The notes below the pieces were generated by a model. That model was given only the letters and a program-made list of their open reading frames with translations, searched no databases and was not told where the DNA came from. Positions 24,005 through 57,708 of a stretch of 64,000 nucleotides of DNA are shown here, in pieces. Numbering within the stretch: the first letter of the stretch is position 1; each line of letters opens with the position of its first letter. Position numbers and translations under genes: made by a program. Source of the stretch: Diplocarpon mali (taxonomy: Eukaryota; Ascomycota; Leotiomycetes; Helotiales; Drepanopezizaceae); NCBI GenBank assembly GCA_024741835.1, contig JAENRP010000206.1, positions 1 to 64,000 of the forward strand, in the 5' to 3' direction.

Positions 24005-24476
24005 GACTCTTAGGCCAGACTTATAAGTGGATTCCTTTAAGGAAAGTGCACTCTTTACTTTAATATAATTAAGTAAGGATAAGGAGAATAGATAGACTCT
24101 TAAGTTAAGATTGCAAGTGAAATTCGCGAAAATAACTCTTAAGCTAAGACTATAGGTAAATTGCAAAGTGTCCTTAAAGATAACTCTTAAGCTAGGATTA
24201 TAAGTAAATTTAATAGAAATGACTCTTAGGCCAAGACCGCAAGTGGATTTTGCAGATTTGCTAATAATAACTCTTAAGCTAGGATTATAAGTGAAATTCG
24301 CAGAAATGACTCCTAGGCTAGGACTATAAGTGAAATTCGCGAATTCGTTAGAAACGACTCCTAAGCTAGGACTATAAGTAGATCTTGCTATTTCTAGGAA
24401 ATCAACTCCTAAGCCAAGACTGCAAGTGGATCTCGCGGTTTTATTAAAAACGACTCCTAAGCCGGGCTTATAATTA
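24005..24476 (+). repeat. array of ten in-frame 25-bp palindromes in Copia-D
   Basis: Ten copies of a 25-bp quasi-palindrome start at 24005, 24095, 24134, 24182, 24221, 24269, 24308, 24356, 24404 and 24452. Each begins (G/A)ACTC and ends near AAGTG. Steps are 90, 39, 48, 39, 48, 39, 48, 48, 48 bp, all divisible by three. The frame that continues into integrase reads each unit as Thr-(Pro/Leu)-(Arg/Lys)-(Pro/Leu)-x-Leu-Gln(stop)-Val. The spacers are 14 or 23 bp and encode short hydrophobic/charged linkers. The array therefore lengthens the protein between protease and GAG-pre-integrase. The minus-strand open frame over 23972-24487 is the mirror reading of the same array. Confidence 0.9.
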
Positions 24477-24499
24477 GAAAACGGCAAAACCTCAAACTA

Positions 24500-25460
24500 C
24501 TATTACTAGTCCTTTCCAGCTGCCGACGACGAAGTATCGACTAATAATAGGCTACTAAAGCTATTAAAAGCCGAAAGCCTATTAAAGTATTAGCTAATAT
24601 ATAAAAGATTCGCGCATTTAAGGCTAGAGAAATTAAAGGGCTTATATAAGGTCTCGACTTTAAAACGGAAGATCTAAGTACCAAAGGATCGCCTAGTATG
24701 CCGAATTTACAAGCTAATAAAACTTTGAAATTAGACGCAAACTAAGCTTAGTCTATAAAAAGATTTAATACTAGTACTAATATCTATTAATACTACTAGA
24801 CTATTTACAACCTTAATTAAAGGAAATAACTAGTTTTCTTAAATAGTAGATAACTTTATTTAATAGATATAGACTATTTGTATTAAAACTAAATCTAAGC
24901 TTATAGAAAAGCTAAAAACTTAGAAAGTAATAAAGGAACGCCAGACTTAATTAAAGCTAATAGCTATTAGGTCTAATAATATATTAAAGATTAAGGCAAA
25001 GCTTAATAAATAGGCAAAATAAGGAGTTTATTATAAATTAACTATAATATATAAAGGTTCCTATAAGAATAGCATTACTAAGCGAAGCATCTAATAAGCA
25101 AAGACTGACTATTGCGCTTTATTATAAGATACTAACCTACTACTGGAATTCTAAGACCTTATAGTTAAGGTAAATGTATACTTATAAAATAGAATAGGTA
25201 GTAGATTAATAGTTAATAGCATTTAAATATCGCTATATAAGGCATATTTCGGATAGAAACTAAGCTTAGACTATATCTGCGTCTTTAAAAGCGTCTGCTA
25301 CTTCTATATTAGCCTAAAGTCCTAGCCTATAGGTATAAAGAGCAAGAAGCTAATAGACTAAGGTAGAGAGTATATATTTATTAAGTATATTAAATAGATA
25401 ATAAAGCAATAGATAGAATATACGCTAGATCTAAAGCGAGTAATTATATCTTTAATAGTT
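24500..25460 (+). pseudogene. Copia-D GAG-pre-integrase and integrase
   Basis: Just after the array the frame reads RFAHLRLEKLKGLYKVSTLK (about 24610-24670), the usual zinc-binding pre-integrase segment, and then the integrase core with IRSNNILKIKAKL near 24970-25010, the position of the second Asp (now Asn). Stops at Gln/Trp positions are frequent. It would join element cDNA to the chromosome. Confidence 0.7.
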
Positions 25461-26079
25461 AAGTTTAATAAATCTTAAAATAAAAAGGAGCTATCCTTAA
25501 AGTTCTATATACTTAGAGATTCGCAAGGTATATCACTCGATAGTAATACTATTAAGCCGAACTAATAACCCTTTTCTTTAAGCTCAGGTATATTAAGCGC
25601 ACCTACTAATCGACGACCTACTAGTCGCCTAAAGGCCGAATAGACTATTCCTATTATCCGCAAATTGCTTAAAGTATAAAACAACTTTAATATTATTATC
25701 CCTTTAATTAAAGTACCTATAGTAAAGGATATTCTTAAAATAGGTATAAGTAATAATAAGCCTCTACTATTAGAAAGCGGTTCCTTAGATGATAAGCCTA
25801 TAGAACCTATAGTTGAACCTACGCCTTTAAAGAGGAATAGAGACCTAGAACCGGAAGACGCCTTAGACGAACGCGAGTTTAAGCGTATCTAGGCTATAAT
25901 AGCGTATAAGATCTACAAGCTCGAACTTTAATAGAGCTTTAATAAAGATAATGCGTTCCTAGCCGCTAAGGGGATAATGAAAATCTCTCTTCTAAAGATA
26001 TATAATAAAGCTATTAATAACCTAGAGAATAGAGTAGTATAAAATAAGGCAATCTAAGAAGAGATAAGCTCTCTTATTG

Positions 26080-27565: not shown

Positions 27566-27585
27566 GGCTTAATAGGCTTAAGGAT

Positions 27586-27610
27586 AACTCCTAGGCCCGC
27601 CTTGCGAGTT
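27586..27610 (+). repeat. 25-bp palindrome copy, Copia-D 3' region
   Basis: First of three copies after the end of pol. The next is 61 bp on, so these are not kept in one frame and probably lie in the 3' untranslated part. Confidence 0.8.
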
Positions 27611-27646
27611 AAGTCATATAGTTTTATAAAGGAAAGTTTTTAGATC

Positions 27647-27671
27647 GACTCCTAGGCCTAGACCGCGAGTT
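27647..27671 (+). repeat. 25-bp palindrome copy, Copia-D 3' region
   Basis: Second of the three trailing copies, flanked on both sides by the related sequence TATAxTxTTATAAAGGAA, so the trailing copies form a loose tandem of about 61-65 bp. Confidence 0.8.
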
Positions 27672-27711
27672 AAGTTATATAATCTTATAAAGGAACGCTT
27701 TTAGGAAATTT

Positions 27712-27736
27712 AACTCCTAGTCCTACCTTGCAAGTA
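27712..27736 (+). repeat. 25-bp palindrome copy, Copia-D 3' region
   Basis: Third trailing copy, more diverged in its centre. Its counterpart in the inverted element is 53977-54001. Confidence 0.7.
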
Positions 27737-27873: not shown

Positions 27874-28068
27874 TATTAAGATAAGTGATATAGCTATTAC
27901 TTTAATGTATTATTATATAACCTTACTGCTTAGTTAATAGGCTATTAATATATATATAGCTATAAGGAAGAAAGGGGTAACCTTCCTCCCCTAACTCTTA
28001 CTAATATATCGACCATCGACCTCTAGAAGTTTCCATTACCTACTGCGCCGACTCATTTAAGCTTAATA
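27874..28068 (+). repeat. Copia-D 3' LTR
   Basis: 195 bp, colinear with 21884-22078. Ends CTTAATA and is followed by AACAC, the target duplication. Confidence 0.9.
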
Positions 28069-28080
28069 AACACTACTAAT

Positions 28081-28387
28081 TGTAATAATACAGAACCACC
28101 GAAGTGCGAGATCAAGTATGGTAGCAAGAAGTGGTGCAAAAGGCGTATTCTATAGGTCTAATACGAAAGAAACGAAGAAGTTAAAGAACCCTCCTTATAG
28201 GAGAGCCCTTTTCCCTTATATATATAAGTAGCTTAAGGCTCTTTGCCCATTTATATAATATTATATAAGAATATCCTTTTGCACTTTTAAGGTCGATTCG
28301 AAATAATCCTATATCGAATTGCGATTCTAAAACCTTAAAACGCTATACTCTTAGGTAATTGCACTAAGTGGAGGAGTAGCCGTTATA
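28081..28387 (-). repeat. Gypsy-B LTR4
   Basis: 307 bp in reverse orientation, TGTAATAATACAG on the left and CCGTTATA on the right. It abuts a 12-base remnant of Gypsy-A copy 2 left after the Copia-D insertion, so it was inserted into or recombined with that copy. Confidence 0.85.
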
Positions 28388-30407
28388 CTACCTCCCCCCT
28401 TTAAGAACGCTTGCTTATAAGCGTTAGTAGGTTATAACGATTTTTTATATAGTAACGTACTTAGCGCGTTATTATGCAAACGGTACCGTTCTATATTTGA
28501 TTTAGCGCAAGTTGCGTTATATACTTAAATTTGTTTTTCCTTCTTATAGGATCTTCCTTCCTTAGTATAATAATTATATATAATCGCATAAGTCCTTTAC
28601 TCCTACTATTATAACATAGGGCTAATATATAGTAGTAGAAACTATTACTATTACTATTACTAACTATTATAAGTAAGTTTATTTTAGTCTAAGGTCGAAT
28701 CGCATCTAATGCGTATAATGCTAATTCCTTTGCCGTTAGGCGCCCTTACAGTGGCTTACTATATATACTACTACTAGTACGTGCGGCGCCTTATGTATAA
28801 TATCGCATATAAGTGCAAGTTTAAATTAAAGCGTAGTAAGAAGTGCTACTAGTACTAAGAGCAAAAGGCAAAGTATATCCTTATAAGTACCTTAAATCGA
28901 CTTTAGAGTTTTATTTAAGCTAATACTTATTTATAGCTTCCCTTTTATATCAATAAGGAGTTTACGGCGCTATCTGCGGCCTTTAAGGAGTAGTAGGAAG
29001 AGGCTCCTTAGTAATAAGAGAGGGATAATAACAATAATAATAAGGATACGCGTACGGTTTTGGCAAGGAATCGCAAGATACTCTATTAAAAGGCGGTCTA
29101 GCGCGCCCAGATCCTTATCAACCTTTTGCTAATAGCTAGTGCAAAGGCTTTAATTAGCCGCTTTTAACTTAAGCGTGCTAACCTCGCAGAGCTCCGCTCT
29201 ATAGCTAAGGCTATAGTAAGCTAGCTAAAAGGGGTCTAGGCAATAGTTACTATAAGTTAAACTTAAAATAGTATTAAATCGATCGCTGAATTTCTATTAG
29301 GAGCGCAGCGACTTTATTAAGTCCTGGCTAGCGAGGTTAACGCAATCCAGCTAAATTATACTAGGCCTCTTAAGGTTTATTACCGCATTAGTAAAGCAAA
29401 CTACTATAGCAGTAGAGTCTCTTATAAGGGGTAGGAGGCTTGCGATAGTAAGGGTAGCATTAGGCGCAGCAGCTAGTAGGGCAGTACTAGCGGCGGCAAA
29501 AGGAGGTCGGGGTCGTTTTAAGCAGGGGTATAGACAGGAGCTAAGCTTTAGCTTTAAAACGGAGTTGGAGCTCGTCTCTTTAAGCGCAAAGGAGGAGGGA
29601 TCGGAGGAGTTATAAGGAAGAGGGGGCAGTAGGCCTAGTATTATTGTTTTTTATTTTTAGATTTATTTACTAATCTATTTTGCGTCTGGCCTATTATCTT
29701 CTAAGTGACTATAATCATTTATACTATCTTTTTAAGCCTTTAGCTAAGCTTATAGGTTTTAAGGTAGTCCTAGCTTAATAGGATTAGCCTAATAAAAGTC
29801 GCGAATCTTATATAAGGATCTTATAAAATTTAAAGCGCGATACTAACTTAAATCAAGGTTATAACTAGTCCATTTGACTTAGTACTTTAAATTCCTTTAA
29901 AATAAGCGTATACCTAGTATTTTAAATACTTTATACTCTTCTTATTTAGCGATCTTTTCTATAGTAGGCTAGGGTTATTCCTAACTTAGCAAAGGGTTTT
30001 ACAGATCTTTAAATAGTAGTTCTAATATAAAGATATTATATATTATAGAACCTATAAGTAGCTTAATCTAATATAAATTGCCTACCTTCTTAAGAACCTT
30101 AAAGGGGCTATCCTATTAATTGGCCAGTTTCCTACTAAGGCAGTAGTTCTTAAGATTTTTTATCAAAAGGTAGACTATATCTTTAAGTTTCTAATTAATC
30201 TCCTTTTAATATTAATTTATAAACTTACGCATTTTCTCTTAAGCGCGTTTTATATTGCCTTTTGCTACTTTTTAAATTAAGTACATCCTCTCTACTATTA
30301 GCCTAGCCTTTGCTTAGTTTAATCTCTCCTATAGGCTTGATATATTCGGAAAGATCTAGTCCTAACTTATCTAAGGTGCAACTCTATACTTAAGCTAATA
30401 TAGGATT
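28081..30407 (-). mobile_element. Gypsy-B copy 2, 3' part (minus strand, truncated)
   Basis: Inverted relative of 16050-18417: LTR at 28081-28387, purine tract (as CCTCCCCCC on the plus strand) next to it, the 3' region to about 29640, chromodomain at about 29864-29975 and the integrase C-terminus to 30407. There the match stops abruptly and another sequence begins with TGTTATGC. The rest of pol and the 5' LTR are not in the window at this place. RIP is comparable with copy 1. Confidence 0.85.
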
Positions 30408-30554
30408 TGTTATGCATAATACCGCTCGGCCAAAATGTGAATCCACCCCTTAAGGCGCGTACTAGTATATTTAGCCTATTTTCTGTATAATACACCCCCT
30501 AGGTCGTCGGAAGAATAGTTTTTCCAGCGGCCTAAGTACTAGCCCAGTCTATAG
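30408..30554 (-). mobile_element. Copia-type 3' end fragment (Copia-F, tentative)
   Basis: Interrupts Gypsy-B copy 2. On the minus strand it reads as a short coding-like tail, a purine tract CCTAGGGGGTG, and then a TG...CA segment of about 87 bp (30494 back to 30408). The same CCTAGGGGGTG tract precedes the 3' LTR of Copia-E at 44695-44705, which is why I call it the 3' end of a Copia element. Gypsy-G is inserted in it; its continuation is probably 53526-53644. Confidence 0.45.
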
Positions 30555-30802
30555 TATAAAACTGAAGGGAGACAACACAAGAATAGGCCTAAGGGAAGAC
30601 CCAAAAACAAGAGGAGGAAGCACCATAAGCAGGCTCTCTTAGATAAGATGTTAGGAACAAGTCCCAAGTATAGGGTATATTCAGTACTATAGCGACGCGC
30701 GCTTATCTCTATATATAGAAGAGGCCCCTTTTTATCCTCCTATCGGCCCTGTCCTATTATATGACTTTTATTATATAATTCATCTATACCTAAGTCTTTA
30801 TA
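30555..30802 (-). repeat. Gypsy-G 3' LTR (left)
   Basis: 248 bp from TATAAAAC to TTTATA. It is strongly RIP-mutated at its right end compared with its partner (for example TTTATTATATAATTCATC here against TTTGTCACGTGATTCATC there). The exact left boundary rests on the ATAG flank and could be a few bases off. Confidence 0.75.
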
Positions 30803-30984
30803 TATATCTTAAATAATAAAAGTAGTAGCCTCTACTACTTTTAGTAAAGAATATAAAATAATATAGGTTAAGGTAATAGCATATCAATTATTAGCAAACC
30901 TTAAGTGCGAGAAAACTAATATATTAAAAGGCCTAAATTAAAGCTATATTATTATTAAAGGTAAAAGAAAAAAAGAAGAGGTTT

Positions 30985-31030: not shown

Positions 31031-31040
31031 ATACGCTTTT

Positions 31041-31065
31041 CACCTATAGACCGGGCCTAGGAGTT
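31041..31065 (-). repeat. 25-bp palindrome copy in Gypsy-G (3' of X1)
   Basis: Lies just right of the gap and beyond the TGA that closes frame X1 at 31141-31143, so it is in the untranslated 3' part. Centre GACCGGGCC well preserved. Confidence 0.8.
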
Positions 31066-31464
31066 AGAAAACGAAACTATCAAAATAAACAAATAAGCTA
31101 TAAAATCGTAAAAATAATTAAAATAAAATTAACTTAGGTATCAGTTTTCCTTAGTTCTTTTCAAAGGATAGGGAGACCTATTACTAGATAATACTCTCTT
31201 TATAAAGCGCCTACTTCTTCTTAATAGCTCGCTATTAGTATCAAAGGAACTAGGTCTTAGTATAATAGGCGTCTCCGTGCTTCTTGCTAATACTAGTATA
31301 GTATAATAACTTCTACCAATAGGGAGAGAAACTTATATTATAGTATTATTATTATCTTTGTCTTTATTATTATTATTATCCTTTAGAGATTCGTTAGTAG
31401 TAAAGGAGGAGGTAATAAGTAACTCAATAGATAATACTTCCTTCTCTTTACCCTTAGTCAAATC

Positions 31465-31489
31465 AAATCGTAGGCCAGGCCTAAGAGTC
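31465..31489 (-). repeat. 25-bp palindrome copy in X1
   Basis: In frame; reads TLRPGLRF in an open stretch, one of the few copies without a stop. Confidence 0.85.
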
Positions 31490-32286
31490 GTATCAAGGGT
31501 TATAATATAAGGTTTCTTAGTACTATACTTTTCAAAAAGTATTGTCTTATTAATCATATTATCAGCTTCGATATCGTTATTATTACCTTTCATCTTAATC
31601 CACAATTTATCTCTATATAGCTATAACTCTAGTTGTTAAATCATCTTCCATATATTTGAAAAATCTTTAAAGAGTTCTTGCTTATATCTCTTTAAATATA
31701 TTATTAGTTATATCATATCTTTAGAAAACAATTCCTTTACTATTATTACTACTAATAGATTATTCCACGATCTTCTACCTATAAGGGCCTTTAATAATAG
31801 ACCACCTTTCGTCATACTAAGGGTTGTATAGAACTTTGCAGAAGATTCTCTTACTATACCCTATCTTACTATACTTAGTCTCTTTATATTAAGTGAATCG
31901 ATGAGAAAATCTTCTAAGTTAGTACTATTCTTAAGTGAATCATTGCCAACAACTTCTATATAATTATTACTAATAGTAAGAAAACTTCCTTTTCCAAGCT
32001 CTCTATTAGAGTCCAAGTCTACGAAAGTACCTTATCTTATAAACATAGAGAATAAAGCGGTCTTATTAGAAATATACTCATCTAATAGTATTCTATCCTT
32101 AGTATTTAGTTCTTTCTACTATACTACGCTTTATGCCAGATTAAGTAAGATCTATTAAGCATTCTTAAAGCGGTAGGGTGTAAGACTTAATAATTCATAT
32201 GATTTTTCCTAAACTGCAAATTCTCTAGTAGATTGTTTTACTATAAGAATTATATAATAGTCGATAGTTCTACTATTAAGGGAGCT

Positions 32287-32311
32287 GACCTGCGAGCTAG
32301 GCCTAGGAGTC
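32287..32311 (-). repeat. 25-bp palindrome copy in X1
   Basis: In frame; reads TPRPSSQV. Ends match the Copia-D array units (GACTCCTAGGCC on the minus strand). Confidence 0.85.
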
Positions 32312-33516
32312 AATTTTACAAACCTAGTATTAGTATCAATTTTAGTAGTAACAATTCTCAAATAGTAGTCAATTCCTATAAACTATACAAGTTTAAGATA
32401 AGCTACTAGCTTATATAAAGAATTATAGCAAGTTAGCAAAGCACTAAGATACAATCTATAATGCATCCTTAATATCTATTATATTAAGCTATAAGTCATA
32501 TTATAAAGGAAGGCGGAAGGTAGCGATGATTTCTTATCTAAGGTATAGAAATAGTATCTATACATTTCTACCTCTTCTTATGCTAAAGTCATAAACGAAC
32601 TCTTCCTGCGAATACTATAGCCTTATATGCGTACTATACCTAAGAATATGCAATTAAACAGTTTAAGCATATTTAAAAAGCCTTTGCTATAGAGTAATAT
32701 AAAGTCGTTTGAGGTTAGTATAGACTTATATTAAGCGGGGGTCTAGGAGATATTATAGAACAATTTTAAAGCCTCAAGTGCTACTTTAAATTTCGCAAAA
32801 CCTAATAATACATCTTTCTTAATCTAGTTAGCTATTCTACTACCGGCGGCCACAATTGTATAATTTCTAAGATATAATAAGAACAAAGTCAGGTTAGGTA
32901 TAGTATAGAATTTATATATATTAAAGGAGACTTATTTGTTAGTTAGAGATAATATTACCAATCTATAGTATTATACATATTATCGTTTATAAAGAGTATA
33001 AAATTTTTCGAGATTAGAGTCTTTGAACATTCCTATTATAAATCTACTTAATCGTATCTTTATCTCTAGCGTTACTACAATTTTAAATCTATTACTATGC
33101 TATAGTATCATCTTAATATTAAAGGGGACTTCATAGCACTCCATAAAGATAGTTATTATACTATCGTCTGATTTTTCTTTAAGAATATAGTAATCACCCT
33201 TTAGCTTTTTATACTTAATGAAAAACTGCATAATATTATCGGCAGAAAATCCATCTTCTCAAAGCTTTATAATCTATTTAATAGCTCTTGCAGTCCCTTC
33301 CTATACTAATAAAACTTCTTCTTAGTCTTCCTTTTTCAAACGCTTTATTATAGACTTATAAAATTCTAGTACAAACTTTTGCAAGTCTTTAGGAAAAGTC
33401 TATACAAGGTCAGATATATCTTTCTTACTATTATTAAAAATTTCTAATATATTAGTAGCCGTGCTATCATCTTCATTAGTCAAATCACTATCTGAGTTAA
33501 TAATATTACATATATT

Positions 33517-33541
33517 AACCCGTAGGCCAGGCTCGCGAGTC
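33517..33541 (-). repeat. 25-bp palindrome copy in X1
   Basis: In frame; reads TREPGLRV, with GCGAG arms retained. Confidence 0.85.
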
Positions 33542-33693
33542 GATTTTATTACTATAGGTATTTAAGGGATTTCGAAAGATAGGGAATCAAAGTCGTCTAA
33601 CTTAGATAATTAGCGGTTAGGGTAGTCTATTATTTATACATAAGATATTATAGGCAACTTATGCTTAAAGGCATCTTCATTATATAGGGCTTC

Positions 33694-33718
33694 CACTTAT
33701 AGGCCGGGCCCATAAGTC
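33694..33718 (-). repeat. 25-bp palindrome copy in X1
   Basis: In frame; reads TYGPGL-stop-V. Ten of the twelve symmetric base pairs are complementary around a central G, the clearest palindrome in the window. Confidence 0.9.
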
Positions 33719-34560
33719 AAATTTAGCTTATTAGTTAAATCCGCCAAAGGTAGTAGCATTTTCTAAGCGGTAGGTATAATAAACTCCTATCTTTCCATCT
33801 TATTATCAAAGTAGTTTATAGTATACTTAGCTAGATAGACTATCTTCTCTTTTATAATAAGTAGACTATATTATAACTGCTATAGTCCGAGTGTATCTAA
33901 AACTGTTTAATTAAGAAGCGCCAAGTTGTTATACTATAAGAGGTCATCTTTCATAGTTTAAATAGCAGAGTGCATAATAGTGCTTAAGAACCTAATAAAC
34001 TTCCTACTTCATATATTATTTCCTTTTAGCTTTTTTATACCTTCTTAAATAGTAAAGTGATTCAACACTTATATAGCTTTTGCCACTAATTAATACATCT
34101 TAAAATTTTTGCCAAGCCCTTATAAGGTATTATTAGCAGTAATATCTATTATAAAGTAGGTTTAAAACAATATGCCACAAGTGCTGCTAGTAAACTATAA
34201 TAGTCTTTTAGTAGACTCCTCCTTTTTATCTCTATTCTTCCGAAACAAGTCTATAGAATTAGCATAACCCTAATATTCTTATAAAAACTTCTCCCAATCA
34301 ATACCTTTAGTTTTCAATTCATTTTCAAAGAAGTCATCAAATCTTAAAAACCCTTCTTCTATAGTAGAAATTCTATAGTTCAATACCTCTATAGATAAGT
34401 TCAAGAATACTTACTATTCTATTTCACCTAACGTTCTATAAGTACTTATAATATCTTCTAATGATCTTAAAGTTTTACCATCTTAAGAGAATCCTCCCTC
34501 TAATATTAGTTCATTGCTAAAGGCAGCCAAGGTCTTACTGCCTAATGCGATAACAGCCAT

Positions 34561-35181
34561 ACTCTTCTTAAGTATAGCCTTTTTACTTATACTTAATAGT
34601 GCTATAATGAATTATTTAACAAAAGGGATAAGGTTCAATTAATAGAAGAATAAATCTTCTAAAAAGAATTTATCAAGACTAGAAGCTTTAATTAGAAAAG
34701 ATTAACAACAGAGAGATAATACTAGTAGTATTATTAGTACTAGTACTAGGGTTTAGTAAGGTTATAGAAAAGGTAAAAAAAAGTATGATCTTAATGCAAA
34801 AAGAGGTTTATTTATAAAGATAAGAATCGCATTAGCGCGCAAAGGAAAAGTAGGTATAAAGAGGCTGAAAGTAAGAACAAAAGTAAGGTATAATATATAT
34901 AAGGACCTATAATTGATAAATGATAATTATCAAAGGTAAGGATGATATTTCAAAGGTAAGCGTTAGAGAGTTATATATAAAGGAAATAATCAAAGGATAG
35001 ATTATATAAAGAATAAAGTAGAGTAAAGAATATATATAAAATAGAATAATAAATAGAGAACAATAAGGTGCTAGTATATAAGAAGTAGATAATCCTAAAA
35101 AAAAAGATTTAACTCGAATTCGTAAGTTCTTTAAATAGTATTCTCTAAGGGTAATAGGCTAGATTCTCTAAATTGCTTAAC
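34561..35181 (-). other. spacer between Gypsy-G frames X2 and X1
   Basis: About 620 AT-rich bases between the TGA of X2 (35184-35182) and the ATG of X1 (34560). No domain or repeat found. The absence of a recognisable start signal leaves open how X1 would be expressed. Confidence 0.4.
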
Positions 35182-35358
35182 TCAATTGTCAGTTCTATTA
35201 TCACTTCAAAGTCTTCTTCTCTTATATTAGTTCTTACTTCTTAGCGATTTTTCAGCTTTAAGGGCCTTTCTCAAAGGATCTTCTATTAGTACATCCAGAT
35301 TTAGTAGCCAAAGTTCATCCAAACTATCTTATAGGCTAAAGCTAGCTAAGTCCAACCT

Positions 35359-35383
35359 CACTTGCAGACCGGGCTCGCAAGTC
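35359..35383 (-). repeat. 25-bp palindrome copy in X2
   Basis: In frame, no stop; reads TCEPGLQV. ACTTGC and GCAAGT arms fully complementary. Confidence 0.9.
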
Positions 35384-36243
35384 AGTCTTAGCGTTTCTAA
35401 GCTTAAGAGTAAAAACAGGGAATTGGTTCCCAAATCAGGGTCTAGCACTATGCTAGTATTACAGCTTATCTCTTTTCCGAATTTTCTTATAATAATATCT
35501 TTATTAATCAATGCATCAGGCTCTTAGATAGCATTTATTTTATTATATTATCCCTAAGACTTAAGTCTATAAAGAAGCGACTTAGTATTTATAATATTCG
35601 TCTAAGTATCAATAAGGGTATTAAAGAGTTTCTAATTATATTCTATAAGATAGATTTTCAATTCGTCTTTATTAAGAAGAAATAACTTCTATACTTCAAT
35701 CATAACTAAAGGGTCTATTTAAGAGCATTAACCAATAATAGCTTTAAAGAGGCTATTATAGTTCTTAAGATGAAAAGCTACCTTAAAAGGTATAGTAGTT
35801 CTACTTATATTAATCTATTAAGGTACTAGAGGTTACTTTAAAGTAAAGATTAAAAAGATAAGATTAAAGATTCGAGTCTTATTTTCCAAGGTATTCTTAT
35901 TACAAATAGCTATATAGTTATTACAAAAGGCTATAAAACCACCAATCCTATAAGAATTATCTAAAAGCATTTTAAGAAGATATTCCTATTTTATTATTAC
36001 TATAATTAGATTGCTATTATTAGTAATAAGTCGCAAGATCTCCTTTTATTTCATTTTTATAGTCATTTAAGCTAATTGAGATTTTGAACTAAGTGCTTAA
36101 GAAGTCTATCGACTTATCTTCTTCGCAGATAGAGTAAGTTTCACATTCGATTAAGAGCTAATCTACCTATTAAGGCTTCCTAAAGCAGGGCCTTATCTAA
36201 TTGATAGGATCTAATAATCTAAGACTCACTTACTAGCAAAATT

Positions 36244-36268
36244 GACTCGTAGTCTAAGACTGTAAGTA
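36244..36268 (-). repeat. 25-bp palindrome copy in X2
   Basis: In frame; reads TYSLRLRV. Centre degraded by RIP. Confidence 0.8.
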
Positions 36269-37629: not shown

Positions 37630-37654
37630 AACTCTTAGTTTAAGACCGCAAGTC
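37630..37654 (-). repeat. 25-bp palindrome copy in X2
   Basis: In frame; reads TCGLKLRV. Confidence 0.8.
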
Positions 37655-38892: not shown

Positions 38893-38917
38893 TACTCGTA
38901 GGACTGGCTTATAAGTC
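38893..38917 (-). repeat. 25-bp palindrome copy at the C-terminal end of Gypsy-G pol
   Basis: In the phase of pol (and of X2): reads TYKPVLRV after NFKPLDKDQDFSNL. Confidence 0.8.
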
Positions 38918-38919
38918 AA

Positions 38920-40320
38920 ATTGGAAAAATCTTAGTCTTTATCCAAGGGTTTAAAATTGCTTATATTGCCGTCGGTTCTTGCAAAAGATTCGAAGGTTAT
39001 ATCAATTTCTAATTTGTCTTTTAAAGGGAATAAGGTCTAATTGTATTAATAAAAGCGCTTTAGTCGGTTAGCTGCAAAGGTTCCTTTAATATCAACTCTA
39101 TCAAGTTCCTAAAGAGAATAGTATCCTTTTTCTTTCTACTTAGATTTAACCTTAAATGGGCTAAGCTATTAATAGTTAAGTTTAGTATCTATTAATATAT
39201 TAATACTTCTTATAATATTGTAAATTAAAATAAGATTATCTTTTTAAATAGGATAAGTCTTAAGTACTTTAAAAGCAGCTTATGCTTCTTTAGCTTTTTC
39301 CTAATATTGTTTCTTTTATAAGATAATATCTTCTATATCTATATCTTAAAGCTTAAGTTGTTAGTATCTTATTATAAGCAAATTGGAATAGTTTTAAATT
39401 TGACTATAATCGAACAATCTTTAAATAGGCTATCGAGATTTAAAAGGGAGCTATGCCTCTTTACTATAGATAAGGAAGAATAGTATAACTCCAATTGATT
39501 TATAAATTATCATTCAATAAGTAAAGAGTATTTTATAAAAGCGTTTTATCTAATCCTTAAATCCTTTGCAAGTAACTTTAAATAGACTATTAAGAATATT
39601 ATAGTATCCTCGTTCTACTACTCTATTAGCTTTTGAATTATACGCTAAGATTTAAACCCGCTTAATACTATATTTTCGTAAGAAAGCTTTAACTACTCTT
39701 TTATTTTCAAGGCCTCTATTAATAGTTAATCTGCTAAAAAGTCCATAGCAATAGACTATATCTTCCTAAAGGAACTTTGCAATAGATTCAAAGTTAGTAG
39801 ATCTTAAAGGTTATCCTTTAAGCTATCCTAATAGGTCTTCCTTTACTATAATAAAATATATTATCCTATTCTTAATAGTTAATACTTATATAATATTAAG
39901 GCTGACTTTATAAAAAAGGCCTAATGGCTAAGTTAGGAATAAGGGATTTTCCTTATAACTAGGTTTTTATTTCTAATAAGCGACGCAACTCTTTACAAAA
40001 GCTTTATAGTCCTTAAAAGAGCCTTTCTAAAAGAATTTTCTTAAGAGTTAGTAGTAAGTGGACTTAGCTCCTTAATAGCCAGTCTTCTTATAAATATCTT
40101 AAATAGCCTTAGCTTGCAGTTTATTATCATTTAAATAAAGCTATATAAGAAATGAGTTATCGCTTCTTTTAAACAATTGCTATCCTTATATTAGATAAAT
40201 CAGAGCTTTAGCTTTAAACTTTTGAAAATCCTTAAGAGGAACTGTCTTTAGTTATTTAAGCGTAATTAAAAATTTTGCAATTTCCTTAAAGTCACTTAAG
40301 TAGTTAAGTGATAAAATTCT
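38920..40320 (-). pseudogene. Gypsy-G integrase
   Basis: After RNase H on the minus strand: the zinc region with KTGYQGAKSTYYLL and FVKSCVAYQKQKPSY (His-His-Cys-Cys, two residues changed by RIP), a core with LNIMQVLTIKNRI, INRGLENKRVVKAFL (second Asp now Asn) and NRVVERGYYNIL holding the catalytic Glu. This is a regular Gypsy integrase with a long, unrecognised C-terminal part. No chromodomain was found. Confidence 0.75.
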
Positions 40321-40327
40321 CTTACTT

Positions 40328-40352
40328 AACTTGCAAGCTAGGACTACGAGTC
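40328..40352 (-). repeat. 25-bp palindrome copy between RNase H and integrase of Gypsy-G
   Basis: One of the two copies read in a different phase: the pol frame gives RLVVLACK here instead of the usual octapeptide. Confidence 0.8.
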
Positions 40353-40401
40353 GAGTCCCTTTAAGGCAATATATTAATAAATAACTAACTTCGTTCTCTA
40401 C

Positions 40402-42200
40402 TTATTTATTAATATCTATTTTATCTTCTTTAATCAAATTAAAGGGGTAAGGACGAGTTCTTCTTAAAAGGCCATCTGCGGTAGTGTTTTTTATTCTTAG
40501 AATATATTTAACTTTAAAGTCTATTAGTCTTATCCAAGCAATCCATTTTATTAATAAAGCTCTTAATAGGTCGCTTATAGCTCTATTCAATTATTCTACT
40601 AGTACTTTAGTATCGGTTTTAAAGATAAAGTAAGTGCTATAAAGGTTGCTTTTTATCTTTTTTATCACTTTTAGTACGCCTTTATATTCCTATTTAATAG
40701 TATTATACTTTATTTCTACTAGATTCTAAAGACCACTTTTAAAGCAAGCTAAATATCTTTTCTATTAGCTATTAGCTTATTAAAGGATAGTACCCTATTT
40801 GATTAAGCTTGCGTCAACTATTAATATAATTGGCCTAGCGTCAGCTCTATAGTCTATTTTAATCAAATATAGCGCTTTAAGCAATGCTTGCTTTAATTGT
40901 TTCATAGCCTCCATTTAGGATTCCTCCTACTAAAACTCAGCCCCTTTTTAAAATAAGGCGTAAATAAGTGCTGCCTTTTTAGCAAAATCCTTAATCTAAA
41001 TGCGATAGTATACTATAACGCTAATAAACGCGCGAGCTTCTGCTATATTATCATACCTCTTTTATTTATCGATTTTAAGTACTTTAGCCCTCTAAGGACT
41101 TCGGCTATTAGAATTAGTAATAAAACTAATAATTTCTATTAATAGAAGATAGTATTATAACTTCGGACTAACTATTGCTCTTACCCTTTCGAATCGTATA
41201 AGCACTTAGTCTAAGTTCTCAATGTATTCTATTATAAATCATTATATACTAAGAAGAACTTCTTTATAATTATAAAATGATCTTAATCCTTTTACTCCTA
41301 TATTATCTATATAAGAGAGCGTAATATTAAGTATACAATCTACTAGTATCTTATAAATTACTTAAACAAATTAAGCGATCGAATTTATAGCCCTTTAAGG
41401 TAATCTTATTATCTAAAGTAGCCTAAGAGAGGTTTGAATTGCTATTATATCTTTCAATTTAATATTAAGAATAAATTGGTTATATCTAAAGAAGAAGTTA
41501 ATAAAAGAGCTGCAGATTAATCTTACGAATTCATTTAAGAACTCATCTATATTTAAAGGAATATTAGCATCCTTAATAGTTACTCGGTTCATTTCTACTA
41601 CTGCTATTATTAGTCTATAAGTTCCCTTCTCTTTCTTAGTAACTAAGAACTATTTATTCTTATAAGGGCTATTACAAAACTCGAGAATACCTTACTTTAA
41701 CCTATCCTTTAACATTTCGATTACCTTTTCTTAAAAAGCTTTAAGGACTCCGAATGTTTTCTCTTACTAGGCTTTATAAGGTATTATCTTAATCTTAATA
41801 TAAGGCATAACCTCTTCTTAAATCTAGCTAAGTTCCGTCTAATCAAAAGCTAAGGCGTCCTTTTAATTTATTAAGGTTTTATAAAGTAGTTTACATTCTT
41901 ACTCTATTAAGTCATTTCCAATTTTCAATATATTAAAACGTTCTTTTATTAGCCGATATCTAATAGGTTTATTAGAAAATCTACCTATAATAAACTTATC
42001 GAATTTACCACCTAACTTTAGAGGTCGAAGCTTCTTATCTTATTTAAACTAATCATCTAATCCTTTAAGCTTCGAGCTATTAGAGATTCCCTAATTTATT
42101 AATTATACTTTATCAGCTTTACTTTTATATATAGTTCGAATATTAGCTAGTACTATGCTTTTCTACTTCTTTCCTTTTTTATTAAATCCTATAAAATAGT
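40402..42200 (-). pseudogene. Gypsy-G reverse transcriptase and RNase H
   Basis: RT reads right to left: YRLIIAVVEMNRVTIKDANI (about 41560-41620), the segment LPQRAINSIAQFVQV, and the catalytic box LSYIDNIGVKGL at about 41288-41325 (second Asp changed to Asn). RNase H shows ILIVDASLIKQGTIL and ends in the open 62-codon piece 40402-40590, with KVKYILRIKNTTADGLLRRT, the usual C-terminal ADALSR-type signature. This RT type, with the DDIGVKGP motif, belongs to a well-spread fungal Gypsy lineage and differs from Gypsy-A and Gypsy-B here. Confidence 0.85.
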
Positions 42201-42294: not shown

Positions 42295-42319
42295 CACTTA
42301 TAGGTCTGGCCTATAAGTG
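42295..42319 (-). repeat. 25-bp palindrome copy between protease and RT of Gypsy-G
   Basis: In the pol phase; reads TYRPDL-stop-V. ACTTATAGG/CCTATAAGT arms well preserved. Confidence 0.85.
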
Positions 42320-42456
42320 GTTTTTAGGTTTTTTAAAATAATTAATAAATTATCGAAATTTATAAAACAAACTCTCTTCTCTACCTTATTTTTCTTTTTT
42401 CTTAATTATTAAGCCGATAAAACGCTAATTGTACTATTCTTTAAAATTCCAGATTT

Positions 42457-42481
42457 GATTCCTAGGCTAAGACCGTAAGTT
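42457..42481 (-). repeat. 25-bp palindrome copy between protease and RT of Gypsy-G
   Basis: In the pol phase; reads TYGLSLGI. Confidence 0.8.
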
Positions 42482-43000: not shown

Positions 43001-44517
43001 TAGGGCTTTTTATTATAACTACTAAACAATTTCGATTAATATTCTAAGATATTAAAGCTATTGCTATAATATTATAATACCTTTAGATTCCTTTGTCTTT
43101 TATAATCTAAAGACATTTAATTAAGGCTAAGTGCTTCTTAGAGTTCTTTTATATTACAATTTCCATTTCCTTATTATTATTCAAATCTTTAAAGGTAATT
43201 AAGATATACTTTCTTAGCACTTTATTAAAGCGTCTAATTAAATTAAATAGATCTTTAAATATAAGGTTAATTTGCTAAGCTATAACATTCTCTATAGCTT
43301 TTTCTATTGTAGTTAAACTAGCGTATTTATTAACGAATTTTTCCTATTTTAATATCTATCTCTTTCGCTTAAAGTCAAGGGTCTATGCAATAACTTTAAC
43401 TTCTTAATCTTTAAGCTTAAAGCTATCTTTATCTATTATATCTTTAATCAATTCGTCTACTATATCGGCTTCATCCTTATCCATTGCGGTTCCAGACTAT
43501 TAGGTGTCTTTTAGCGTTTAGACTCTATATTAAGATTCCTAAGTTGTATATGCTAATTTCTAGACTTTAGCTAGTTTTATTAATATTAATAAAGTAGAAG
43601 ATCTAAAAGGACGCCGAGAATTCCAAGGGTTCTTAAATATAAAAGCAGTATTAATATCAGCTGAAACATTATTATTAACCTATCTTAAGATAGAAATGCC
43701 TCTAACTTCTATAACTATTTAATTAAAAGCTAAGTCCTTAAGAACTCCCTTAGGTAGATTGCTAGTTAGACCTATATATATATAAGTTGGAATTTTAATA
43801 TTCATATCTATAATACACTATCGTTCGACCAAATTTTCATCCTATTTTATACTATATATTATTATTCAAACAGTCTATAACTATAAGCGATTTTAGTACT
43901 TTTTAATAAGGATAGCTTTTAGCCTAGGATCTTTAATATAAAGCATCTCATACTTATTAATATATATAACCCTTATATTAATAAAACGTTAGAAAAGAGG
44001 ACATTTATTATAATACTTATATAAAGGGTAATTAGGTTCCTTATTACTACAAAAGTTGCAAATTAGTCTTCTTCTATTACTATTTCCTTAATACCTTATA
44101 ATATTAATATTGGCAGAGTGCTAATTAGGATTAATTTCTCTTTCTTCAATTAACTATTGCATTTTTATATTAGCTAGTTATTCCGAATGATAAGAAGTAG
44201 AAGTCTAATAATAAGAACTACTAGGTTAGCTTATAATAGCTAAGTTTTGCCTATTACTAAATTAAGGAATATACTATTTTTCTTATAAGAGATCATTAAT
44301 CCTAATTTCTAAGCTTTAGATTTAGAGTTTTGTAAATTAGATCTTAAGTTCTTTAATTCTAAAGTTGGATCTTACTCCTAAGTCAGGCCTATAAATAAAA
44401 GGTATAACTACTAGGTTCTTCTTTACCTCCTCTATAACTTCTAAAGCCTTTGAATATTCTTAGACTAGGCTCTTAAGGTCTTTAGTATAAGAGGGAGTAA
44501 GGGCTTTTTCCTACTTT
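43000..44517 (-). pseudogene. Gypsy-G gag, C-terminal part and gag-pol linker
   Basis: Continues the gag frame after the Copia-E insertion: KALTPSYTKDLKSLV, a long Glu/Lys/Gln-rich, coiled-coil-like stretch, and near 44000-44110 a Cys-x2-Cys region (CNFCSNKEPN) that may be a zinc knuckle. The reading phase differs from that of RT, so a frame change between gag and pol is implied, as in many Gypsy elements. Confidence 0.55.
44373..44397 (-). repeat. 25-bp palindrome copy in Gypsy-G gag
   Basis: In the gag phase; reads IYRPDLGV. Confidence 0.8.
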
Positions 44518-51719: not shown

Positions 51720-53277
51720 ATTAATAGTTCTCTTACTAAGATCTGATTTCAAAGCAAAGGCCGAGAATTCCTTAAATAAGGTAAAGGTTATAAAGTCTTG
51801 CTTATTAATCCTAAAATGCTTAATAATCTTATTTCAAAGGCTAATAGGTAATCTAAGTAAGAAAAGGCGGCCTCTTTCAACTTCGCTTAGTATTTTCTAG
51901 CTAATTAAAGTATTTAATATATAAGTAAAAGTCCAATAGTAGTTCTTAAGTTCCTTAAGAGTCTAAGTGACTAAAACAAATTCCTTTAAGAAAGCCAAAG
52001 TGTTGCAAATCTACTATCTATCAAATTCTTAGAATTCAGATTTAAAAGCCTTAATAAGGAGTTCTTATAAACCATACGTTTTCCATTTAAGGAGGGATTT
52101 GATAATATCTTTGCTTATATAATTATAGTAGCAAGGGAGCTAAGAAATCATATCTACTTATAAAATACCAAAATCGTAACAAGTTTCTTTATATTACTTA
52201 AGGAAATTAGTAATATTAGCTCTTATAAAGTAAAGAGCATTAGGAGAACTAAGAAAGGGAAAGTGGCTAGTAATAGCCTTAAATGCGGCCATTATTATTT
52301 TATATTAACCGTCCGAATTAATAGAATCTATAAGGGGTAAAGCAAAAGCTTTAATATTATAAGATTAGTCGCTAAAAGGAGTACTTCGAAATTCAAAAGG
52401 GCTTAACAAACGTTTAGAATCCAAGTTAATCTTAAAATAACTAGGACAAGTTTAAAAAGATTTAAATAAAGGGTTAGTAAAAAGTTTAAAATTATTATTA
52501 TTTTTAATATTTTCAAGCATTAATATTAAAAAAGTAAGTAGTAGTCTTAAGTTATTTAAGGATGTCTTTTTATCCTCCTACTTATAAGCTAAGCCTAAGA
52601 GTAGAATTCCAGATTCTATTAAAAGTTTAATCTAAGTTTGCTAAGAGATTCTAAGTAGGTATTAAATAGCTAATAAAAGCGTTATAACTAATTGCAATAA
52701 GATAAGGTTTACTTAATCTAAGACCAATTTCTAAGATAAAGTTTATATATAAGATTCTTCTTAGCCTTTAGGCCAATTCCTATTAGTCCTTAGAATAAAG
52801 GGGTCTTTAGAGACGATTTTAAGGCAGTTTTTAAAGTTCTATCGAACTAAGGCGGCTGAATTATTAAATTCGGATTTCTAAAGATTTTAAAGAGGCACTT
52901 CTAATTAGAGTTTGCGCTTAATATTACTTAAGTACTTAAAACCACTACTATTTAAGATTACTTTTATAAGGTTTGCTAAACTTTTTATACTAAGAAGCTG
53001 AAAATTCCGAAAATCTCAAAGTTAAGAAAGAAAATAAGGGTTTTTAAAGCAAAGCTAAAAAGGGAAAATCTAAGGTTATTAATAGTTGTTAAACAAAAAT
53101 CGATAGTTCTAAGTAATTAAGCGATTAAAGATAAGGTTTTTAAAGTTGATCAAAATGCTATAAGTGTTTCGAAGATGTATTTTTTAAAAGGCCAGTCTCT
53201 TATCTATAAATAAAAAGATTGATAAAGTCGTATAAGGACGGAAATCTTAAGAAATCGGTCCTTGTATAAGTCACTAA
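51720..53277 (-). pseudogene. Gypsy-G gag, N-terminal part
   Basis: Leader and gag upstream of the Copia-E insertion. Open stretches read MAAFKAITSHFPFLSSPNAL (from 52292), then YFIRANITNFL and KEFVLVTQTLKELKNYYWTF; the frame runs into the insertion site at SKRTINT. It would form the particle core. One palindrome (52579) lies upstream. RIP stops prevent translation. Confidence 0.6.
52579..52603 (-). repeat. 25-bp palindrome copy near the start of Gypsy-G gag
   Basis: Second copy out of the usual phase: the gag frame, if it extends here, reads LLLGLAYK. Confidence 0.75.
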
Positions 53278-53525
53278 TATAAAACTAAAGAGAGATAATA
53301 TAAGAATAGGCCTAAGGGAAGACCTAAAAATAAGAGGAGGAAGCACCATAAGCGGGCTCTCTTAAATAAGATGTTAAGAACAAGTCCTAAGTATAGGATA
53401 TATTTAGTACTATAGCGACGCGCGCTTATCTCTATATATAGAAGAGGCCCCTTTTTATCCTCCTATCGGCCCTGCCCTATCATATGACTTTTGTCACGTG
53501 ATTCATCCATACCCAGGTCTCCACA
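53278..53525 (-). repeat. Gypsy-G 5' LTR (right)
   Basis: 248 bp from TATAAAAC to CCACA, without indels relative to 30555-30802. Its right end is little mutated and contains CACGTG; its left part is more mutated than in the partner. The mutations of the two LTRs are thus complementary. Confidence 0.8.
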
Positions 53526-55620: not shown

Positions 55621-56249
55621 TATATACCATTTATAATAAAAGAGCTTATCTCCTTTTAGATTGCCTTATTCTATACTGCTCTATTCTCTAAGTTATTAAT
55701 AGCTTTATTATATATCTTTAAAAGAGAGATTTTCATTATCCCTTTAGCGGCTAAAAACGCATTATTTTTATTAAAGCTCTATTAAAGTTTAAGCTTATAG
55801 ATCTTATATACTATTATAGCCTAGATATGCTTAAACTCGCGTTTATCTAAGGCGTCTTCCAGTTTTAAGTCTCTATTCCTTTTCAAAGGCGTAGGTTCAA
55901 CTATAGGTTCTATAGGCTTATTATCTAAGGAACCGCTTTCTAGTAGTAGAGGCTTATTATTACTTATACCTATTTTAGGAATATCCTTTACTATAAGTAC
56001 TTTAATTAAAGGGATAATGATATTAAAGTTGTTCTATACTTTAAGCAGTTCGCAGATAATAGGAATAGTCTATTTAGCCTTTAGGCGATTAGTAGGTCGT
56101 CGATCAGCAGGTGCACTTAATATACTTAAGCTTAGAGAAAAGGGTTATTAGTTCGGCTTAATAGTATTACTATTAAGTAGTATACCTTGCGAATCTTTAA
56201 GTATATAAAGCTTTAAAGATAGCTCCCTCCTATTTCGAGATTTATTAAA

Positions 56250-57220
56250 CTCAATTACTAAGGATATAATTACTTACCCTAGATCTAGCGTATATATTAT
56301 CTATTGCTTTATTATCTATTTAATATACCTAATAAATATATACTCTTTACCTTAATCTATTAGCTTTTTACTCTTTATACCCGCGGGCTAGGACTTTAGG
56401 CTAATATAAGAGTAGTAGACGCTTTTAAAGATGCAGATATAGTCTAGGCTCGGTTTCTATTTGAAATATGCCTTATATAGTTATATTCAAGTGCTATTAA
56501 CTATTAGTCTATCACTTATTCTATTTCATAAGTATATATCTGCCTTAACTGCAAGGTCCTAGAATTCTAGTAGTAGGTTAGCATCTTATAATAGAGCGCG
56601 ATAATCAGTCTTTACTTACTAGATGCTTTGCTTAGCGATACTATTCTAATAAGAACCTTTATATATTATAATTAGTTTATAATAAACTCCTTATTTTACC
56701 TATTTATTAAGCTTTGCCTTAATCTCTAATGCGTTATTAGACCTAATAGCTATTAGCTTTAATTAGGTCTAGCGTTCCTTTATTACTTTCTAAGTTTCTA
56801 GCTTTTCTATAAGCTTAGATTTAGTCTTAGCGCAAATGGTCTATATCTGCCGAGTAGAGTTATTTACTATTTAAGAAAACCAGTTATTTCCTTTAATTAA
56901 AGTTATAAATAATCTAGTAGTATTAATAGATATTAGTGCTAGTATCGAATCTTTCTATAGATTAAGCTTAATTTGTATCTGATTTCAAAGTTTTATTAGC
57001 TTGCAAATTCAGTATATTAAGCGATCCTTTAATACTTAAATCTTCTATTTTAAGGTTAAGACCTTATATAAGCCCTTTAATTTCTTTAGCCTTAAATACG
57101 CAAATCTTTTATATATTAGCTAGTACTTTAATAGGCTTTTAGCTTTTAATAGCTTTAATAGCCTATTATTAATTGATACTTTATTATTAGCAGCTAGAAA
57201 GGACTAGTAATAGCAGTTCG
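56250..57220 (-). pseudogene. Copia-D copy 2 integrase and GAG-pre-integrase
   Basis: Mirror of 24500-25460, ending at the palindrome array. Assigned by colinearity with copy 1; catalytic residues are partly lost to RIP. Confidence 0.65.
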
Positions 57221-57236
57221 AGGTTTTACTATTTTC

Positions 57237-57708
57237 CAATTGCAAGCCCGGCTTAGGAGTCGTTTTTAATAAAACCGCAAGATCTACTTGCGGTCTTGGC
57301 TTAGGAGTCGATTTCCTAGAAATAGCAAGATTTACTTATAGTCTTAGCTTAAGAGTTATTTCTAATAAATTCGCGAATTTTACTTACAGTCCTAGCCTAA
57401 GAGTCATTTCTGCGAATTTTACTTATAATCCTAGCCTAAGAGTTATTATTAGTAAATCTGCAGAATCCACTTACAGTCCTAGCCTAAGAGTCATTTCTAT
57501 TAAATTCACTTATAATCCTAGCTTAAGAGTCATCTTTAAAGATATATTGCATTCTACTTATAGTCCTAGCTTAAGAGTCATTTTTACGAATTTCACTTGC
57601 GATCCTAGCTTAAGAGTCTATCTATTCTCCTTATCTTTACTTAATTATATTAGGGCAAAGAGTGCACTTTCCTTAAAGGAATCTACTTATAAGTTTGGCC
57701 TAAGAGTC
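57237..57708 (-). repeat. array of ten 25-bp palindromes in Copia-D copy 2
   Basis: Copies start at 57237, 57285, 57333, 57381, 57420, 57468, 57507, 57555, 57594 and 57684 (steps 48, 48, 48, 39, 48, 39, 48, 39, 90). This is the exact mirror of the array in copy 1, so the array predates the two insertions and is a fixed part of this Copia family. The open frame at 57547-57741 reads it on the non-coding strand (TYSPSLRV, TCDPSLRV). Confidence 0.9.

What the first reader, a model, noticed from the sequence alone, without database searches (positions are those of the whole stretch)
24005..57708. A 25-bp palindrome dispersed about 40 times in two unrelated retrotransposon families
By reading I count 13 copies in each Copia-D element and 14 in Gypsy-G. 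Copia and Gypsy pol genes are not homologous at these sites, so the motif was not simply inherited with one element. Arms are ACT-x-x-x-(A/G)G(G/C)CC and their complement, around a central base. I noticed none in Gypsy-A, Gypsy-B, Copia-C or Copia-E. This looks like a tiny mobile or gene-converted element living inside transposon ORFs. Rickettsia palindromic elements are the closest known parallel (established knowledge); a fungal nuclear counterpart would be new to me.
Basis: partly seen in the sequence, partly recalled or inferred. Interest (0 to 1): 0.9.

Follow-up and report, generated by a model that had tools for sequence, protein, structure and literature searches.

The report
Palindromic repeat spread among fungal retrotransposons
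A 23-letter palindromic DNA word is repeated about ten thousand times in one fungal genome; wherever it was looked at it lies in retrotransposon-rich DNA, often between encoded protein domains and in one reading frame, and how it spread is still unknown.

Summary
A 23-bp palindromic core (weakly extended to about 35 bp) occurs at 37 places in the stated interval and at 10,072 genome-wide, against 22 for the reversed-pattern control; the less mutated form ACTCSCGRGCCNGGCYCGSGAGT has 192 against 0. It lies in at least four LTR-retrotransposon families (Copia-D, an L007-type Copia, Gypsy-G, Gypsy-H) and two unclassified hosts, not just two. Of 20 sampled 10-kb stretches, its 32 matches fell in AT-rich parts of four. 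Arrays vary mostly by in-frame lengths (36 of 37). Intact Diplocarpon coronariae proteins translate it as TPGPGPRV; 18 of 19 coding sites share one frame, yet third codon positions are near fixed too and some copies are 3' of pol. Asymmetric arms are in excess (P=0.009), favouring copying from one ancestor. Best reading: a short palindromic repeat living inside LTR retrotransposons, duplicated in tandem and dispersed to domain linkers and UTRs, loosely like Rickettsia palindromic elements. No clean empty/filled pair was found; the dispersal engine is unproven, and a selected protein-binding or RNA element remains possible.

The parts
24006..24475 (+). Copia-D copy 1: array of 10 palindrome copies (24006, 24096, 24135, 24183, 24222, 24270, 24309, 24357, 24405, 24453), spacing mostly 39 or 48 bp, upstream of the integrase/RT part, in the pol reading frame
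   Evidence: intact relative P0136 translates a similar array
27587..27735 (+). Copia-D copy 1: three copies (27587, 27648, 27713) after the apparent end of pol and before the 3' LTR (about 27874-28068), in mixed frames
31042..31064 (-). Gypsy-G, 3'-most copy; frame 2, probably outside the ORF
31466..31488 (-). Gypsy-G copy, frame 0 if the ORF continues to here
32288..32310 (-). Gypsy-G copy, coding, frame 0
33518..33540 (-). Gypsy-G copy, coding, frame 0
33695..33717 (-). Gypsy-G copy, coding, frame 0
35360..35382 (-). Gypsy-G copy, frame 0
36245..36267 (-). Gypsy-G copy, frame 0 (4 mismatches)
37631..37653 (-). Gypsy-G, decayed copy recognised through L031:3961, frame 0
38894..38916 (-). Gypsy-G copy, downstream of the integrase zinc-binding match, frame 0
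40329..40351 (-). Gypsy-G copy between the RNase H and H2C2 matches; the one coding copy not in frame 0 (frame 1)
42296..42318 (-). Gypsy-G copy upstream of RNase H, frame 0
42458..42480 (-). Gypsy-G, decayed copy recognised through L031:8788, frame 0
44374..44396 (-). copy at the 5' end of Gypsy-G, frame 2, coding status unknown
52580..52602 (+). copy in a fragment that matches L023 (upstream of Gypsy-H gag) and L014
54043..54126 (-). Copia-D copy 2: 3' copies (54043, 54104)
57238..57707 (-). Copia-D copy 2: array of 10 copies (57238, 57286, 57334, 57382, 57421, 57469, 57508, 57556, 57595, 57685)
39958..40917 (-). Gypsy-G RNase H (about 40917-40539) and integrase H2C2 (about 40128-39958; below its curated cut-off) matches on either side of the linker copy
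   Evidence: coordinates converted by hand

Best explanation
A short dispersed palindromic repeat that lives inside LTR retrotransposons of Diplocarpon-type fungi. SHOWN: its less mutated form reads ACTCSCGRGCCNGGCYCGSGAGT, often with asymmetric arms (one CCC, one CGC); it occurs in Copia and Gypsy families, in polyprotein linkers and also 3' of pol; arrays differ between copies by in-frame lengths in units holding the palindrome plus flank; intact relatives translate it, nearly always as T[PR][GE]PGP[RG]V-like peptides. INFERRED: most copies were amplified with their transposons; all copies descend from one ancestral word and reached new sites and new families by occasional local copying (most simply strand transfer during reverse transcription, or gene conversion); only insertions that keep the frame in flexible linkers, or lie outside ORFs, survived. 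RIP-like C-to-T mutation of dead transposons then produced the degenerate versions in the window.
For: 10,072 vs 22 control; 192 vs 0 for the less mutated form. Copia and Gypsy hosts by Pfam. Different linkers and positions 3' of pol. Between protease and RT, Gypsy-H has four units in L023 and two in L049 where P0003, whose pol is 76% identical to D. coronariae P0001, has none; P0013 has STREPGPRV further down that linker, where L023 and L049 have none. 36 of 37 near-full-length matches to that array region differ from the query by multiples of 3 bp, with groups at 0/+3, -42/-45 and -87/-90. Third codon positions near fixed. Asymmetric-arm excess: 19 of 28 sites, 12.6 expected, P=0.009. No match in the GC-rich parts of 20 sampled stretches; 8 of 8 hand-picked sites lie in sequence matching other motif-bearing loci.
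Against: No clean empty/filled allele pair, no target-site duplication, no mobility machinery found. 18 of 19 coding sites in one frame means strong selection or a phase-linked process. Gypsy-G sites look fixed across its copies. P0003 keeps a similar peptide (TREPGARV) at nearly the same place in the RNase H-integrase linker as P0001, so part of the distribution is plain inheritance. Position 9/15 shows no asymmetry excess. The whole-genome copies were mostly not inspected.
Confidence: 0.5

Rival explanations
1. A functional cis-element: the palindrome is a dimeric protein-binding site (activator, insulator or anti-silencing factor) or an RNA hairpin that retrotransposons need, so copies accumulate by selection, as with Su(Hw) sites in gypsy (recalled) or the motifs bound by VANC proteins in VANDAL elements (search listing and abstract starts).
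For: Near-fixed third codon positions; arrays and positions outside ORFs; pooled transversion rates inside sites below outside for the 75-80% Gypsy-G comparisons (2 of 322 against 1024 of 16143) and for Copia-D (0 of 1015 against 93 of 15830); both arms vary at the same positions, 5 and 9; two of four examples fold clearly better than shuffles (z -3.3 for L046, -2.1 for window 33680-33730).
Against: In the 85%-identical Gypsy-G comparisons there is no depletion (2 of 161 against 165 of 10911) and transitions are higher inside. The pooled pairs are not independent; a sliding-window test is weak (P=0.02 for 3 sites, 0.10 for the 2 not used to pick loci). The asymmetric-arm excess suggests descent rather than independent half-site evolution. 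Many copies sit inside pol. The two imperfect examples fold little or no better than shuffles (z -0.3, -1.4).
Confidence: 0.3
2. A protein-level repeat: T[PR]GPGPRV is a useful flexible linker or cleavage-related peptide, and the DNA palindrome is a by-product.
For: 18 of 19 coding sites in one frame (and hand arithmetic); intact proteins carry the peptide in several linkers.
Against: In the matches listed, third positions 3 and 21 do not vary and 6, 9, 15 and 18 each use two bases; copies 3' of pol in Copia-D and in the L006 group; one coding copy off frame (40329). Caveat: recent shared ancestry of those matches could also keep third positions alike.
Confidence: 0.1
3. Simple inheritance plus recombination: the word was present in an old element and passed between families once or twice by recombination, the rest being tandem duplication; no mobile behaviour.
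For: Sites are shared across copies and subfamilies; the RNase H-integrase linker carries a related peptide or copy in P0003, Gypsy-H and Gypsy-G; units include flank.
Against: Flanks of different sites are unrelated apart from a few bases (37 flank clusters); Gypsy-G alone has about ten separate sites.
Confidence: 0.1

Closest known systems
Rickettsia palindromic elements (RPE)
   Same: Short palindromic repeat in many copies, inside ORFs in frame and also outside them (in-frame insertion recalled; the two passages of PMC2694212 that I saw only show RPEs as annotated repeat families).
   Different: RPEs are longer (about 100-150 bp, recalled), bacterial, and enter host genes (recalled); here 23-35 bp, nuclear, seen in LTR retrotransposons, often in tandem arrays.
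Short palindromic repeats of Volvox carteri (PMC2670323, passages read)
   Same: Short selfish-looking palindromes in very many copies; spreading mechanism left open by the authors.
   Different: Mainly organellar, intergenic and intronic; nuclear copies there are called inert. Here nuclear, many in coding linkers of transposons.
VANC target motifs of VANDAL transposons (PMC5735166, PMC10398659; search listing and abstract start only)
   Same: A short motif accumulated in transposons.
   Different: Those are bound by transposon-encoded anti-silencing proteins; no binding protein is known here, and the hosts are two LTR superfamilies with many coding copies. Further details of VANDAL are recalled.
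CHSeq1 palindrome of fungal GalEa Copia elements (PMC5445492, passages read)
   Same: A conserved palindrome in fungal Copia elements.
   Different: A 9-bp sequence beside the 5' LTR, discussed in connection with the primer binding site; unrelated sequence and position.

Membership tests
Rickettsia palindromic element-like repeat | palindromic short repeat far above chance | tested here: met
   10,072 vs 22; 192 vs 0
Rickettsia palindromic element-like repeat | inserted in frame in ORFs and also present in noncoding DNA | tested here: met
   noncoding status of the 3' copies judged by eye
Rickettsia palindromic element-like repeat | enters host genes unrelated to mobile DNA (recalled) | tested here: not met
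   no match in the GC-rich parts of 20 sampled 10-kb stretches; 8 of 8 chosen sites match other motif-bearing loci; most of the 10,072 sites were not inspected
Rickettsia palindromic element-like repeat | filled/empty orthologous sites | tested here: inconclusive
   present/absent between related elements in a length-variable linker; no precise allele pair; P0012 has a gap there that may be a gene-model artefact
Rickettsia palindromic element-like repeat | length about 100-150 bp (recalled) | tested here: not met
   23-bp core, about 35 bp with flanks
transposon-borne protein-binding motif (VANC/Su(Hw) type) | bound by a specific protein with effect on transposon expression | not testable with these tools
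   needs binding or ChIP experiments
transposon-borne protein-binding motif (VANC/Su(Hw) type) | conserved above neighbouring sequence | tested here: inconclusive
   depleted in two of the comparison sets, not in the 85% Gypsy-G set; weak
MITE | terminal inverted repeats with target-site duplication | tested here: inconclusive
   50 sites printed with flanks (one row misprinted), no consistent duplication by eye; no systematic test
mitochondrial GC cluster origin | copies in the mitochondrial genome | tested here: inconclusive
   no COX1 match in the assembly, so no mitochondrial contig to test

The most novel reading that the evidence does not exclude
A hyperparasite of retrotransposons: a palindrome of about 23-35 bp without genes of its own that hops between sites and between Copia and Gypsy elements during reverse transcription, confined to retrotransposons because it moves only in their replication cycle, and tolerated because in the surviving frame it adds a flexible proline/glycine peptide to domain linkers.
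Probability: 0.25. Interest if true: 0.87.

Novelty: new variant of a known kind. Interest (0 to 1): 0.62.

Why it matters
In-ORF palindromic repeats are known to me mainly from bacteria (recalled); a nuclear fungal case carried by both Copia and Gypsy elements would show that sequence words pass between unrelated retrotransposons and become translated linkers. With about ten thousand copies in one genome and a less mutated set of 192 it gives a testable system for how such palindromes spread. If instead it is a binding site, it points to an unknown factor on which several fungal retrotransposon families depend.

Tried and rejected
Adapter or assembly artefact: rejected, since the word varies, lies in frame in intact database proteins of D. 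coronariae and has site-specific flanks. Chance in AT-rich DNA: rejected. Other palindromes: a scan of five sequences (window, L023, L028, L031, L033) found 18 hits away from the motif and 13 at it; none of the 18 looked recurrent by eye. Strict purifying selection: the pooled contrast for the 75-80% Gypsy-G pairs (Fisher 5e-07) counts dependent pairs and is overstated; the 85% pairs show none; the sliding-window version is weak. Hairpin pairing as sole constraint: arms at positions 5/19 are mismatched more often than expected. Other hosts: 0 exact matches in viral contigs for two patterns and in prokaryote contigs; these collections hold few or no fungi and may leave out near genomes. Gypsy-G protein search: 15 remote homologues (20-25% identity), so its linkers could not be compared. 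P0137, a Copia relative, lacks the part where the array would lie. A search for unit number in the RNase H-integrase linker scored the 40 best of 215 candidates, all with the query's span, so it does not sample other unit numbers. Pfam gave nothing in 31031-37701 and 28001-30900. Papers searched; in the listed titles and abstract starts I saw no such repeat in a fungal nucleus; most subscription papers are not held. Printed frame labels 1 and 2 are swapped by a script slip; one search gives the right ones.
Full report
WHAT WAS CHECKED. The window lies in an unnamed fungal assembly (49,369,952 bases, 676 contigs). Best protein hits of the mutated transposon frames are to Diplocarpon coronariae (70-74% for Gypsy-H; 57% for Copia-D), which suggests that species or a relative; the identity is inference. 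Its transposons are AT-rich and full of TAA/TAG, with transitions far above transversions, as expected after repeat-induced point mutation (established knowledge; no RIP index was computed).

THE MOTIF. A consensus scan finds 34 sites at the chosen score; simulations of the 36.5-kb region give none. At <=4 mismatches 38 sites, 37 in the stated interval. The core is 23 bp; symmetrised frequencies over 37 flank clusters show a further pyrimidine at -2 (98%) and a weaker A/T-rich extension out to -6. Genome-wide 10,072 against 22 for the reversed control; the less mutated form 192 against 0 at <=1 mismatch. Twenty 10-kb stretches were taken at positions chosen without regard to matches, but on 14 contigs that one search lists. 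Their 32 matches fell in four (L023 8, L024 1, L028 17, L031 6), all in AT-rich parts; GC-rich stretches had none, nor had L025 and L033, which are partly or mostly AT-rich. Eight further sites picked by hand all match other motif-bearing loci.

FAMILIES AND PLACES. Pfam on X-masked frames: Copia-D (RVT_2) and Gypsy-G (RNase H; H2C2 below cut-off); Gypsy-H in L003, L011, L023 (RVT_1, RNase H; in L011 also rve, SH3, H2C2 and Chromo below their cut-offs) and a Copia-type element in L007 (Retrotran_gag_2, SH3). Two hosts stay unclassified: the L006/L009/L024/L046/L052/L053 group, where by eye the palindrome follows what reads like the end of a Copia pol, and which shares no sequence with L007, so it may or may not be another family; and a 2.0-kb insert in a Gypsy-H pol (L014 about 553-2593) with repeated ends, perhaps a nonautonomous LTR element, carrying three sites. 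Places: an array upstream of the integrase/RT part and three copies 3' of pol in Copia-D; between gag and SH3, and after SH3, in L007; in Gypsy-H gag, protease-RT linker, RNase H-integrase linker and upstream of gag; 11 coding sites (two decayed) along Gypsy-G. Motif-free elements exist: outside the stated interval the window has only one site at <=4 mismatches (19651), although one search finds other Gypsy and Copia pol parts there; L033, with a Copia RT, has none.

TANDEM UNITS. In Gypsy-H the RNase H-integrase linker has one copy (L003, L011) or two (L004, L012, L015, L023); three hits 45 bp apart at C45:189744/189789/189834 are presumably the same linker, not read. Over the protease-RT array, 37 near-full-length matches differ from the 4-unit query by -90 (2), -87 (1), -45 (9), -42 (4), -30 (1), -12 (8), -1 (1), 0 (4, the query itself included), +3 (3), +18 (3) or +63 (1) bp; 36 of 37 are multiples of 3 (40 of 190 candidates scored; five shorter rows of the 42 left out). 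Read as 45-bp units this suggests two to five units; two (L049) and four (L023) were read. In the L007 group the two copies are 25, 31 or 43 bp apart and share right-hand flank. So units duplicate with their flank.

TRANSLATION. Intact D. coronariae proteins read DSTPGPGPRVTLAQIDSTRGPGPRV in the RNase H-integrase linker (P0001), DFTPGPGPRVDSRN in gag (P0012) and, by eye, eight T-P-G-P-like units in Copia (P0136; four by the search expression). Of the 165 proteins listed by the three protein searches (524, 15 and 30 hits; only 120 of the 524 listed), the frame-0 expression hit six: P0001, P0002, P0003, P0012, P0013, P0136; the frame-1 expression hit P0006 in a stretch conserved in P0001 too, so probably chance; the frame-2 expression hit none. 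Frames: transversions favour one codon position through 32.2-34.6 kb, not at 34.6-35.2 kb. In that frame, which is also the RNase H frame, 10 of 11 Gypsy-G coding sites are frame 0 (42458, 42296, 38894, 37631, 36245, 35360, 33695, 33518, 32288, 31466) and 40329 is not; 31042 and 44374, also off frame, are left out as probably outside the ORF. Upstream of 36.5 kb there are too few transversions to confirm the frame independently. With Gypsy-H (3 of 3), Copia-D (2 of 2, the array counted once) and L007 (3 of 3), hand arithmetic gives 18 of 19, about 3e-08 under random phase if sites were independent, which is not certain.

DNA OR PROTEIN. The peptide TPGPGPRV with third positions free has 108 matches in the genome, control 0. 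In the listed ones third positions 3 and 21 are T and A throughout, 6 is C/T, 9 G/T, 15 C/A, 18 G/A, and 12 is free (by eye). With the copies 3' of pol this points to a DNA-level word, though recent shared ancestry of these matches would have the same effect. In 28 hand-compiled sites with arrays collapsed, position-5 arms are C/G in 19, G/G in 9, C/C in 0 (12.6 mixed expected; P=0.009); position 9 shows no excess. Sites of one element are not fully independent. Types by family: Gypsy-G 7 of 13 G/G, the rest mixed; Copia-D 5 of 5 and Gypsy-H 4 of 4 mixed, but the second unit of P0001 (TRGPGPRV) implies a G/G copy in Gypsy-H.

MOBILE OR NOT. For: many unrelated flanks in several families; Gypsy-H has the protease-RT array where P0003-P0007, P0010, P0011, P0014 and P0016 (those aligned) do not, while P0013 has STREPGPRV further down the same linker and P0003 a faint TTREPVPPV there. 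Against: that linker varies in length, so no exact empty site can be drawn; P0012 has a longer gap there, perhaps a gene-model artefact, and was not used; P0003 has TREPGARV close to the P0001 copies in the other linker; Gypsy-G sites 33518/33695 seem present in all 40 copies scored of 246 (span differences -3 to +10 bp). Conservation inside sites is suggestive in two comparison sets and absent in a third, weak in the stricter test. RNA folding: two of four examples clearly better than shuffles.

VERDICT. A real, abundant and, to my searches, undescribed palindromic repeat carried by retrotransposons. Copying from a common ancestor is the better supported origin; the engine is a guess. Function as a bound site is the main rival. 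Papers: PMC5445492, PMC2694212, PMC2670323, PMC11527701 and PMC5628827 were seen as passages found by terms; PMC5735166 and PMC10398659 only as listing and abstract start. In the main text of the two Diplocarpon genome papers the term palindrom does not occur.

Noticed in passing
window 31144-42780, minus strand: Gypsy-G appears to carry one very long frame: TGA-free runs in the same frame follow each other for about 11.6 kb, with codon periodicity at 32.2-34.6 kb but not at 34.6-35.2 kb; no Pfam match in 31031-37701.
   Followed up: partly
L014, about 553-2593: A 2.0-kb insert inside a Gypsy-H pol with similar stretches near both ends (574-777 and 2290-2486 match the same window piece) and three palindromes: perhaps a nonautonomous LTR element.
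   Followed up: partly
L006:850, L024:1358, L046:235, L052, L053: Several AAGGGGTGATTTTTTTT-like tandem units stand just before the palindrome in the 3' region of a Copia-type group.
   Followed up: no
window 30546-30797 and 53269-53520: Two 252-bp copies (90% alike) that match parts of L014 and L023, probably LTR or leader pieces.
   Followed up: no
P0003, P0013: Gypsy polyproteins without organism names with TREPGARV / STREPGPRV in linkers, suggesting the same word in other fungi.
   Followed up: partly
window 785-1681: Open frame in the GC-rich left end, looks like a YeeE/YedE-type membrane transporter (by eye, no search).
   Followed up: no
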